Source of the DNA: Thermoflexales bacterium
Lineage (GTDB): Bacteria > Chloroflexota > Anaerolineae > J036 > Brachytrichaceae
NCBI GenBank assembly: GCA_019694215.1
Contig: JAIBCK010000012.1
Span: forward strand, 1 to 50,149
Length of the DNA stretch: 50,149 nt
Direction: 5' to 3'
Below are positions 24,984-27,456 of this stretch, piece by piece. The notes beneath the pieces were generated by a model. The model worked only from the letters and a program-made list of their open reading frames with translations, was not told where the DNA came from and searched no databases. How positions within the stretch are numbered: position 1 is the stretch's first letter; every line of letters starts with the position of its first letter. Position numbers and translations under genes: made by a program.

Positions 24984-26873
24984 TTACTCCAGTGCCCCCT
25001 TGATGGCCAGCGCGACGTCGCGCGGTACCACTTTGGCGATTGCATCCGGCTCGGCGGCCTTGAGGCCCTCCAGCGAGCCAAAGGTCTTGAGCAGGCGACG
25101 CCGACGTGCCGGCCCGACGCCCGGAATGGCATCCAGCCGTGACGCGAGCCCGAGTTTGGTTCGTTGTGCGCGGTGGCCGGTGATGCCGTAGCGGTGGGCC
25201 TCATCGCGCACCCGCTGCAGGAGAAAGAGCGCCTGCGAGTCGCGCGGCAGCATCAGCGGGTCAGCGTGTCCGGGGCGGAAGATCTCCTCCTCGCGCTTGG
25301 CCAGTCCGATCACCGGCACGACGTGGGCGAGGTCGAATGCCTTCAGCACCTCGACAGCCACGCCGAGCTGCCCCTTGCCGCCATCGATGACGAGCAGGTC
25401 CGGCAGTACGCTGAACGAGGCATCGACCTTGGCCGCCTTCCTGCCCGGATCATGTCGCGCCCCGCCCTCGGCGGCGCCTTCCTCGCCACCGCGCTCCTTC
25501 CAACGCTGGAAGCGCCGGGTCAGGGCCTGGCGCATGGACTCGAAGTCGTTCGGGCCCTCGAGCCCTTTGATGTTGAACTTGCGGTAGTCGGCCTTGCGGG
25601 GCTGGCCGTGCGCGAAGACCACCATCGCGCCGATGATCGCGACGCCCTGCGTGTTGGAGATGTCGAAGCACTCGATCCGCGCCGGTGGATGCGGCAGGTC
25701 CAGGGCATCCTGCAAACCCTTTAGCGTCGCCTCCTGGCGATGCGTGTCGGCCTCCCACTGCGCCTTGAGCGAGGTCAGCGTCTCTCGCGCATTGTCCCGC
25801 GCCAGCGCGAGCAGGTCCTCGTCCGCCTGAGAACGGGCGATGTTCACCCGCACCTCGCCGCCGCGCCGCTGCCCAAGCCAGTTCTCGATGATGTTGGCCT
25901 CGTCGATCTGCGTCGGCAACAGCACATCGGGCGGGACGTGCGCGGCCTCGCCGTAAAACTGGGTGAGAAACGAATCCAGGATCGCGGCCTCGTCCTCGCC
26001 CTCGGCGCCATCCAGCACGAAGTACTCCTGCCCCAGCAGCTTGCCGCCGCGGATGAAGAGGACCTCGACGCAGGTGTCGCCATCCTCGCGCGCAAAGGCG
26101 ATGACGTCCTGATCGCGCATGCTGCTGTTGATGATGCGCTGCTTCTCGGTGACGTGGCGGACGGCCTTGAGCTGATCGCGCAACAGTGCCGCGCGCTCAA
26201 AGTGCATGTTCTCGGCGGCCGTCCGCATGCGCGTCTCGATGTCCACCACGACCTCGTCGCTGCGCCCGTCCAGAAAATCGCACAGACGCTGGATCGTGGC
26301 GCGGTATTCAGCCCGATTGATCGCGCCGATGCATGGCCCGCTGCACAGCTTGATGTCGTAATACATGCAGGCGCGTCGATCCTGGCCGGTGATCTCGCGG
26401 TCGCAATTCAGGAAGGGGAACATCCGACGCAGCGTGTCGCGCGTGCGATACACGGCATCGGCGTTCGTAAAGGGGCCGTAATAGCGCCCGCCGTCCTTGT
26501 CCATCCGCCGCGTCACGACGACGGTGGGGAAGTCATCCTGCCAGGTCACCTTGAGATACGGATAGCGCTTGTCGTCCTTGAGCCGGATGTTGTAGCGTGG
26601 CTTGTAGCGCTTGATCAGCTCGTTTTCCTGGATCAGCGCTTCGAGCTCGCTCCCGCGCACGACGAACTCCAGCCGGGCGATGTCGCGCACCAGGCGGCCC
26701 GTCTTCGGGTATTGCAGCCAGGTCGTCGGGTTGAAATACGAGCGCACCCGGTTGCGCAGGTTCACCGCCTTGCCAACGTAGATGACCTCATTGGCTGCGT
26801 TGTAATACAGGTAGCAGCCGGGAGAGGTGGGGAGGGCGCGAACAGCCGCCTCGAGGTGTTCCGGGATCGACAT
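24984..26873 (-). CDS. uvrC: UvrABC excinuclease subunit C
   Basis: Makes both incisions around bulky DNA lesions in nucleotide excision repair; 629 residues. The GIY-YIG endonuclease at the N-terminus shows GCYLYYNAANEVIYVGKA. The UVR helix pair is near 200-235. The RNase-H-like 5' incision domain has ECFDISNTQG and LLVIDGGKGQL, and C-terminal helix-hairpin-helix motifs include AIPGVGPARRRRLL. A Gly/Glu-rich insertion (about 455-475) precedes the RNase-H core. A LexA-like palindrome lies directly upstream of the start, suggesting DNA-damage induction. Confidence 0.97.
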   Translation of the reverse strand: MSIPEHLEAAVRALPTSPGCYLYYNAANEVIYVGKAVNLRNRVRSYFNPTTWLQYPKTGRLVRDIARLEFVVRGSELEALIQENELIKRYKPRYNIRLKDDKRYPYLKVTWQDDFPTVVVTRRMDKDGGRYYGPFTNADAVYRTRDTLRRMFPFLNCDREITGQDRRACMYYDIKLCSGPCIGAINRAEYRATIQRLCDFLDGRSDEVVVDIETRMRTAAENMHFERAALLRDQLKAVRHVTEKQRIINSSMRDQDVIAFAREDGDTCVEVLFIRGGKLLGQEYFVLDGAEGEDEAAILDSFLTQFYGEAAHVPPDVLLPTQIDEANIIENWLGQRRGGEVRVNIARSQADEDLLALARDNARETLTSLKAQWEADTHRQEATLKGLQDALDLPHPPARIECFDISNTQGVAIIGAMVVFAHGQPRKADYRKFNIKGLEGPNDFESMRQALTRRFQRWKERGGEEGAAEGGARHDPGRKAAKVDASFSVLPDLLVIDGGKGQLGVAVEVLKAFDLAHVVPVIGLAKREEEIFRPGHADPLMLPRDSQALFLLQRVRDEAHRYGITGHRAQRTKLGLASRLDAIPGVGPARRRRLLKTFGSLEGLKAAEPDAIAKVVPRDVALAIKGALE

Positions 26874-26890: not shown

Positions 26891-26896
26891 ATTCTA
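26891..26896 (-). promoter_or_regulatory. -10 box TAGAAT of uvrC
   Basis: TAGAAT on the minus strand, 17 nt before ATG 26873, overlapping the TAG stop of the upstream small gene. Confidence 0.45.
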
Positions 26897-27166
26897 CCCG
26901 CCGCCACGGATCAGCTTGAGGTCCAGCTGCGGGCGGAGGCGGGCCAGTGCTTCGGCCTCGCCCTCGACCTGGATGCGCACGCGCCCGACCCGCAGCGAGC
27001 CCAGGATCAGCGGCTCGGCGGGATCGACGCGCCCGCGCCAGCCCTCGCCGAGGAACCAGCCGTCTTCGCCTTCCTGTGCGCCGAGGTCGCGGAAATACTT
27101 GCCCATTAGCCAGGGCGTGATCGAACCGACCGTGATGTCCAGCGGACCTAGGTCATCACCGAACAA
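26894..27166 (-). CDS. MoaD-related protein, C-terminal domain as separate frame
   Basis: About 90 residues, from TTG 27166 to a TAG just before uvrC. Visible features are ITPWLMGKYFRDLGA, a central acidic/Gly-rich part (EGEDGWFLGEGW) and a C-terminal tail ending in three glycines. I recall a two-domain MoaD-related protein of Thermus in which a ubiquitin-like domain is followed by such a domain with the same PWL and terminal GGG features. Here the second domain is in the +1 frame relative to the upstream MoaD-like gene and overlaps it by 11 bp. A GGGAGG five bases before the TTG would allow separate translation. A frameshift, programmed or artefactual, is the alternative. Confidence 0.6.
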   Translation of the reverse strand: MFGDDLGPLDITVGSITPWLMGKYFRDLGAQEGEDGWFLGEGWRGRVDPAEPLILGSLRVGRVRIQVEGEAEALARLRPQLDLKLIRGGG

Positions 27167-27443
27167 GACCGCCTCCCACCGCCGGGAAGAGCTCGACTTC
27201 GTCCTGCTCGCGGATGGGCGTCTCGAGCAGGTGTTCGAGGTAGCGCACATCGCGACCGTTGACAAAGACGTGCACGTAGTTGTGCAGCTGCCCCTTGTCG
27301 TTGAACAGCTCCGCGCCCATGGCCGGGTAGCGCGCCACGACCTCGTCGAGGACGTGGCGGATGGTGGTGCCATCGCTGCGCGCGACCTCGATGGTCTTGC
27401 TGCCGATGACCTGTCGCAGGGTGGCAAAAACACGAACAATCAC
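27156..27443 (-). CDS. MoaD/ThiS-family ubiquitin-like sulfur carrier
   Basis: About 95 residues with the beta-grasp fold of sulfur-carrier proteins. It starts VIVRVFATLRQVIG, has HVFVNGRDVRYLEHL, and ends ELFPAVGGG followed by Leu-Val-Arg. A true MoaD or ThiS ends in a free GG, so this one would need trimming or is not used as a thiocarboxylate donor. GTG 27443 lies exactly 7 nt after a TACAAT box; ATG 27452 overlaps that box and is the alternative start. No other molybdopterin gene is nearby. It is followed by the overlapping second-domain frame and then uvrC. Confidence 0.75.
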   Translation of the reverse strand: MIVRVFATLRQVIGSKTIEVARSDGTTIRHVLDEVVARYPAMGAELFNDKGQLHNYVHVFVNGRDVRYLEHLLETPIREQDEVELFPAVGGGLVR

Positions 27444-27450
27444 GGGCCGC

Positions 27451-27456
27451 ATTGTA
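27451..27456 (-). promoter_or_regulatory. -10 box TACAAT of the MoaD-like gene
   Basis: TACAAT followed by 7 nt and GTG; an ATG overlaps the box. The same geometry is seen at 239 and 40437. Confidence 0.55.

What the first reader, a model, noticed from the sequence alone, without database searches (positions are those of the whole stretch)
26894..27456. MoaD-related protein split into two overlapping frames
The MoaD-like domain ends FPAVGGG then Leu-Val-Arg-stop. The next frame (+1) overlaps it by 11 bp and encodes a domain with PWL and a terminal GGG that I recall as the second half of a single MoaD-related protein in Thermus. A GGGAGG sits 5 nt before TTG 27166, so separate translation is possible. 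A +1 frameshift near CGG-TGA, or a sequencing error, would instead fuse the two. Both parts carry glycine tails, which matters for thiocarboxylate or conjugation chemistry.
Basis: partly seen in the sequence, partly recalled or inferred. Interest (0 to 1): 0.7.

Follow-up and report, generated by a model that had tools for sequence, protein, structure and literature searches.

The report
Coupled MoaD-like and DUF1952 tail proteins
Two small neighbouring bacterial genes, one for a ubiquitin-like sulphur-carrier protein and one for an unrelated fold that also ends in a fixed arginine-glycine tail, are truly separate, overlap by 11 bases, and across many relatives sit beside a tungsten enzyme gene, so they are probably its dedicated maturation pair.

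Summary
A MoaD/SAMP1-type ORF (27452-27156, ends FPAVGGGLVR) overlaps by 11 nt an ORF in another frame (27166-26894, DUF1952/PF09189, ends LIRGGG). The sequencing-error and frameshift readings fail. A same-genus genome has the same split at the homologous codon; 45 of 49 surveyed loci are split; the frame relation varies between relatives; fusion arose about five times. In all 42 resolvable split loci the second gene starts within -10 to +8 nt of the first gene's stop, as expected for translational coupling. DUF1952 has a TBP-like fold and ends exactly in R-[GA]-G-[GA]-stop in 49/49 loci, while the MoaD tail has extra residues in about half. In 37 of 48 relatives a tungsten-type aldehyde:ferredoxin oxidoreductase (AOR) gene lies convergent and downstream; a haloarchaeal plasmid has a similar layout. 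Best reading: two proteins acting together in AOR tungstopterin maturation (association shown; chemistry inferred). MoaD-AOR linkage and a haloarchaeal TBP-like GG protein were already published; the bacterial DUF1952-AOR link and invariant tail I did not find described.

The parts
27156..27452 (-). MoaD-like / SAMP1-type gene, 98 aa from ATG 27452; ends FPAVGGGLVR-stop
   Evidence: PF02597 59.5 bits; NCBIfam SAMP1 NF041918 89.6 bits, cut-off 60, and moaD_arch 73.5 bits; bacterial moaD TIGR01682 20 bits, below its cut-off of 66
26894..27166 (-). DUF1952 gene, 90 aa from TTG 27166; ends LIRGGG-stop; TBP-like fold in the model
   Evidence: PF09189 40.6 bits; AlphaFold2 pLDDT 90; best structure match 1V8C C-terminal domain, Z 11.7 against 7.7 for the next entry
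27156..27166 (-). 11-nt overlap of the two genes (TTG start to the end of the MoaD TGA)
   Evidence: sequence; TTG aligned with the GTG start of the same-genus homologue
27172..27177 (-). GGGAGG, ribosome-binding-like motif 5 nt before TTG; these bases also encode part of the MoaD VGGG tail
   Evidence: sequence
26897..26914 (-). codons of the DUF1952 C-terminal tail L-I-R-G-G-G
   Evidence: R-[GA]-G-[GA]-stop in 49/49 loci
24984..26873 (-). uvrC, next gene downstream, 20 nt after the DUF1952 stop; neighbour only, not part of the module
   Evidence: Pfam UvrC domains; different neighbour in relatives

Best explanation
Two separate proteins made from overlapping, probably translationally coupled genes. 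The first is a MoaD/SAMP1-type ubiquitin-like sulphur carrier. The second, DUF1952, is a small TBP-like-fold protein with an invariant C-terminal R-[GA]-G-[GA] tail projecting from its last helix. Together they form an accessory pair dedicated to tungsten-type aldehyde:ferredoxin oxidoreductase. Most likely the MoaD-like protein, after trimming of its LVR extension, carries the thiocarboxylate sulphur for the tungstopterin dithiolene, and DUF1952 binds the same carrier, E1 or apo-enzyme through its tail. Shown: two genes, coupling-type spacing, conserved tail, AOR linkage. Inferred: sulphur chemistry, trimming, and what the DUF1952 tail does.
For: Split in 45/49 loci, including the same genus. 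In all 42 resolvable split loci the second start lies -10 to +8 nt from the end of the MoaD stop, 29 of them overlapping. AOR lies downstream and convergent in 37/48 relatives, 30 of them within 300 bp, and in most further loci. All 46 DUF1952-positive class genomes have AFOR_N, against 303 of 396 overall. Own AOR (C120) is 84% identical to the G001 AOR that adjoins the pair. Own genome has a separate canonical moaD-moaE, so this pair is an extra copy. Similar layout on a haloarchaeal plasmid. In L105 and L118 DUF1952 directly follows AOR on the same strand; in L105 a MoaD gene lies about 1.5 kb away on the other strand, so the two genes need not be adjacent. AOR-linked MoaD was proposed for tungsten cofactor (PMC1779556); a MoaD-type Ubl supports tungsten cofactor in Thermococcus (PMC11323500).
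Against: In the window's own genome the pair is not beside AOR but between a PMT-like gene and uvrC. No biochemical test exists for DUF1952. Seven of 49 DUF1952 tails end in Ala and half the MoaD tails are extended, so a classical terminal-Gly thiocarboxylate is not guaranteed for either. AOR is common in this class, so genome-level co-occurrence is partly phylogeny.
Confidence: 0.62

Rival explanations
1. One protein broken by a sequencing error, or joined by programmed +1 frameshifting at CGG-TGA.
For: Thermus 1V8C and five loci (L075, L082, L083, L087, L113) are fused in one frame. One relative, L069, has a G-run at the junction and no clear start, and may hold a real indel.
Against: Same-genus split at the same codon; 45/49 split; frame relation varies (+1, +2, or 0 with a stop between); starts cluster at the stop codon; in L105 the two genes lie apart.
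Confidence: 0.03
2. DUF1952 is itself a second, non-beta-grasp ubiquitin-like carrier or modifier: its RGG tail is adenylated by the E1 and thiocarboxylated or conjugated, with the MoaD-like protein as partner.
For: R-[GA]-G-[GA]-stop in 49/49 loci with no extra residue, at mean pairwise identity 40%; in fused forms it is the only free tail; haloarchaeal arCOG06308 (TBP-like fold, GG tail, beside MoaD) was proposed as a ubiquitin analogue (PMC2948915) and a Salarchaeum DUF1952 homologue sits near a SAMP1-type gene.
Against: Seven of 49 end in Ala; the fold differs from E1 substrates of known structure; no conjugate is known.
Confidence: 0.25
3. The pair works as one stable complex, DUF1952 being a non-catalytic scaffold or chaperone for MoaD or apo-AOR, the tail being a docking peptide.
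For: Repeated fusion, about five origins on the tree; tight coupling; tolerance of terminal Ala.
Against: The R-[GA]-G core is invariant, more than a generic docking peptide needs; in L105 and L118 DUF1952 is not beside MoaD.
Confidence: 0.3

Closest known systems
Thermus thermophilus MoaD-related protein (PDB 1V8C)
   Same: Same two domains in the same order, a Gly-Gly motif after the first and a terminal GGG
   Different: One fused chain; here two overlapping genes
AOR-linked MoaD genes (Iyer, Burroughs and Aravind 2006, PMC1779556)
   Same: Extra MoaD beside AOR, apart from the Moco operon; Thermus is on their list
   Different: In the passages I read, no DUF1952 partner, no coupled split and no convergent order are described
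arCOG06308 (Makarova and Koonin 2010, PMC2948915)
   Same: Small TBP-like-fold protein with C-terminal GG next to a MoaD-like gene
   Different: Haloarchaeal; identity with DUF1952 is inferred from the Salarchaeum homologue; AOR is not listed as its neighbour there
MoaD-MoaE linear fusion cleaved by JAMM (Deinococcus DRJAMM, PMC8832034)
   Same: MoaD fused to a partner and cut to leave a C-terminal Gly, a precedent for processing of the fused forms
   Different: Partner is MoaE, not DUF1952; no processing shown here
Aromatoleum aorD/aorE (PMC6365974)
   Same: MoaD-like genes in an AOR operon, proposed tungsten-cofactor maturation factors
   Different: AorD and AorE are both described as MoaD-like; no comparison with DUF1952 was made

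Membership tests
DUF1952 (PF09189) | score above the Pfam cut-off | tested here: met
   40.6 bits against 22
DUF1952 (PF09189) | fold of the 1V8C C-terminal domain | tested here: met
   predicted model pLDDT 90; 1v8c Z 11.7, rmsd 1.9, 85 residues
SAMP1 / moaD_arch ubiquitin-like proteins | score above the NCBIfam cut-off | tested here: met
   NF041918 89.6 bits (cut-off 60), TIGR01687 73.5 (49.5)
SAMP1 / moaD_arch ubiquitin-like proteins | protein ends exactly at Gly-Gly | tested here: not met
   window ends GGG-LVR; 22 of 45 split loci, the window included, have at least one extra residue
canonical bacterial MoaD | TIGR01682 cut-off and moaE neighbour | tested here: not met
   20 bits against 66; the genome's moaD-moaE pair is elsewhere, on C115
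AOR-linked MoaD (tungsten cofactor) | gene adjacent to AOR | tested here: inconclusive
   met in 37/48 relatives including the same genus, not met in the window's own genome, where AOR is on another contig
arCOG06308 | homology to the haloarchaeal TBP-like GG protein | tested here: inconclusive
   Chloroflexota DUF1952 profile finds Salarchaeum P0003 (KAIRAGG end) with E 3.6e-17 in a SAMP1/AOR cluster; the arCOG membership of P0003 was not looked up; Pfam gives P0003 no family
programmed frameshift gene | conserved frame relation and site | tested here: not met
   three frame relations among relatives
thiocarboxylate sulphur carriers | E1-dependent adenylation and thiocarboxylate | not testable with these tools
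   needs biochemistry

The most novel reading that the evidence does not exclude
DUF1952 is a ubiquitin-type tail carrier on a non-ubiquitin (TBP-like) fold, found in bacteria and haloarchaea, activated or recognised through an invariant R-[GA]-G-[GA] end and dedicated to tungsten AOR, working beside a beta-grasp carrier.
Probability: 0.22. Interest if true: 0.8.

Novelty: new variant of a known kind. Interest (0 to 1): 0.5.

Why it matters
It gives a domain of unknown function, solved in 2004 and named in none of the held papers (0 papers for DUF1952), a concrete and testable role in tungsten-enzyme maturation. It shows that the Thermus fusion is one of several fused forms of what is usually two coupled genes. 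It links a bacterial Pfam domain to the haloarchaeal TBP-like GG proteins proposed as ubiquitin analogues. The invariant arginine-glycine end on an unrelated fold makes it possible to ask whether ubiquitin-like tail chemistry exists outside the beta-grasp fold.

Tried and rejected
Sequencing error or frameshift: rejected (see rivals). A link to uvrC: rejected, since the neighbour differs in relatives. JAMM/Prok-JAB presence as a predictor of extended MoaD tails: uninformative, 55 of 58 genomes have one. Weak DUF1952 hits L013 and L015-L017 set aside as chance: no MoaD beside them and two contain stops. The L003 ThiS hit on C8 was first taken for the globin protein; it is a Ubl-E1-rhodanese fusion next to a JAB gene. 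First genome-contig scan with the window protein found nothing. Plasmid search with a consensus DUF1952 found nothing; the 1V8C sequence found only MoaD halves, which led to the haloarchaeal cluster. Natronococcus plasmid: DUF1952 homologue present, no MoaD or AOR found in the 10 kb held. Halopiger: match in two pieces, not pursued. The tail codons as a universal ribosome-binding site: a full GGAGG occurs only in some split loci, so not claimed. MoaE was not among the 50 entries listed by the structure comparison, which excludes nothing.

Full report
What is there. Both ORFs are on the minus strand. The MoaD-like ORF runs from ATG 27452 to TGA 27156 and ends FPAVGGGLVR. The second runs from TTG 27166 to TAG 26894 in another frame and ends LIRGGG; they overlap by 11 nt. 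Pfam gives ThiS (59.5 bits) and DUF1952 (40.6 bits), both well over the cut-offs. The best solved relative of the joined sequence is the single Thermus chain 1V8C (E 3e-23). NCBIfam places the first protein in the SAMP1/moaD_arch group, not in canonical bacterial MoaD.

Not an error and not a frameshift. DUF1952 was found in 46 of 396 genomes of the class. Record titles of relatives name Chloroflexota, in part Anaerolineae, and two Planctomycetota. I fetched 48 loci from relatives and, with the window, scored them with local profiles: 4 are fused in one frame, 45 are split. The same-genus genome G001 is split at the homologous codon (GTG against TTG), its MoaD ending exactly in VGGG. The DUF1952 frame relative to MoaD is +1, +2 or 0 with a stop between, depending on the locus. 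In 42 split loci with a resolvable start, the start lies -10 to +8 nt from the last base of the MoaD stop, and 29 overlap it, mostly as ATGA or TAATG/TGATG; three split loci (L054, L059, L069) gave no start near the stop. This is the usual spacing for translational coupling; coupling itself is inferred. A tree of both domains together (63 rows) needs five changes between fused and split, four of them forced by well-supported branches; the window's sister is the split G001 (100/97). Long branches (Thermus, L083, L113, L119, Salarchaeum) make the exact number unsure. Both ORFs show dN below dS against G001.

The tails. DUF1952 ends in R-G-G-G (30), R-A-G-G (12) or R-A-G-A (7) directly before the stop in 49 of 49 loci, at mean pairwise identity 40%; 24 further loci, partly the same genomes, fit, one with R-S-G-G. 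The MoaD-like tail ends exactly at the last Gly in 23 of 45 split loci, carries 1-3 more residues in 18 and longer ends in 4. So the stricter terminus is that of DUF1952. The window's LVR extension would have to be trimmed for thiocarboxylate chemistry. JAMM proteases cut MoaD fusions to leave a C-terminal Gly in Deinococcus (PMC8832034), and the window genome has a Prok-JAB gene, but so do nearly all these genomes, so this is a possibility only.

Structure. The window's DUF1952 was modelled with 14 homologues (pLDDT 90): strand, helix, three strands, long helix to residue 87, free GGG. The 1V8C C-terminal domain is the clear best match (Z 11.7; next 7.7). The name TBP-like for this fold rests on my knowledge of SCOP; the match to 1V8C is the tool result.

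Context. In 37 of 48 relatives an AOR gene (AFOR_N and AFOR_C) lies downstream on the opposite strand, in 30 within 300 bp. Several of the 11 without it are short contigs. All 46 DUF1952-positive class genomes have AFOR_N, against 303 of 396; phylogeny inflates this. In L105 and L118 AOR directly precedes DUF1952 on the same strand. Many loci also carry a protoglobin protein with a ThiS-like C-terminal part. In the window's own genome this protein and an AOR (84% identical to that of G001) lie together on contig C120, while the pair sits on C14 beside uvrC. The genome has its own moaD-moaE on C115, and a single ThiF-type E1, fused to a Ubl and a rhodanese-like part, on C8.

Archaea. On a Salarchaeum plasmid a SAMP1-type gene (ending VAGG plus ten residues), a small gene, and an 85-aa gene ending KAIRAGG are followed by a small gene and an AOR on the opposite strand. 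The 85-aa protein matches the Chloroflexota DUF1952 profile at E 3.6e-17, though Pfam itself gives it no family. This fits the description of arCOG06308 (PMC2948915), but I did not look up its arCOG.

What is known. MoaD-AOR linkage and a tungsten-cofactor role were proposed in 2006, with Thermus on the list (PMC1779556). MoaD-type Ubls serve tungsten cofactor in Thermococcus (PMC11323500). TBP-like GG proteins were proposed as ubiquitin analogues in Halobacteria (PMC2948915). No held paper names DUF1952. What I did not find described is the usual two-gene form, the DUF1952-AOR link and the invariant tail.

Verdict. An ordinary, conserved two-gene module rather than a broken gene; interesting because it points an uncharacterised, oddly tailed domain at tungsten-enzyme maturation.

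Noticed in passing
L066:3521-4522 (minus), L130:6672-7640, and homologues in many loci: Protoglobin domain with a ThiS/MoaD-like C-terminal part ending PPGR without Gly-Gly, beside AOR and often beside the MoaD-DUF1952 pair; no held paper names protoglobin and MoaD together.
   Followed up: partly
G000 C8, L091:5647-7557 (minus): Prok-JAB gene next to a Ubl-E1-rhodanese fusion and an apparent cystathionine gamma-synthase-like gene, probably a separate sulphur-carrier system.
   Followed up: no
L069 junction (G056): MoaD runs 42 residues past VGGG and the DUF1952 frame lacks a clear start; a G-run at the junction may hold an assembly indel.
   Followed up: no
relatives L043-L089: The convergent, tail-to-tail order of DUF1952 and AOR is conserved over much divergence, which is unusual for genes not in one operon and is unexplained.
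   Followed up: no
L110 (G584): DUF1952 homologue ending RSGG with no MoaD or AOR found within the 3.2 kb held.
   Followed up: no
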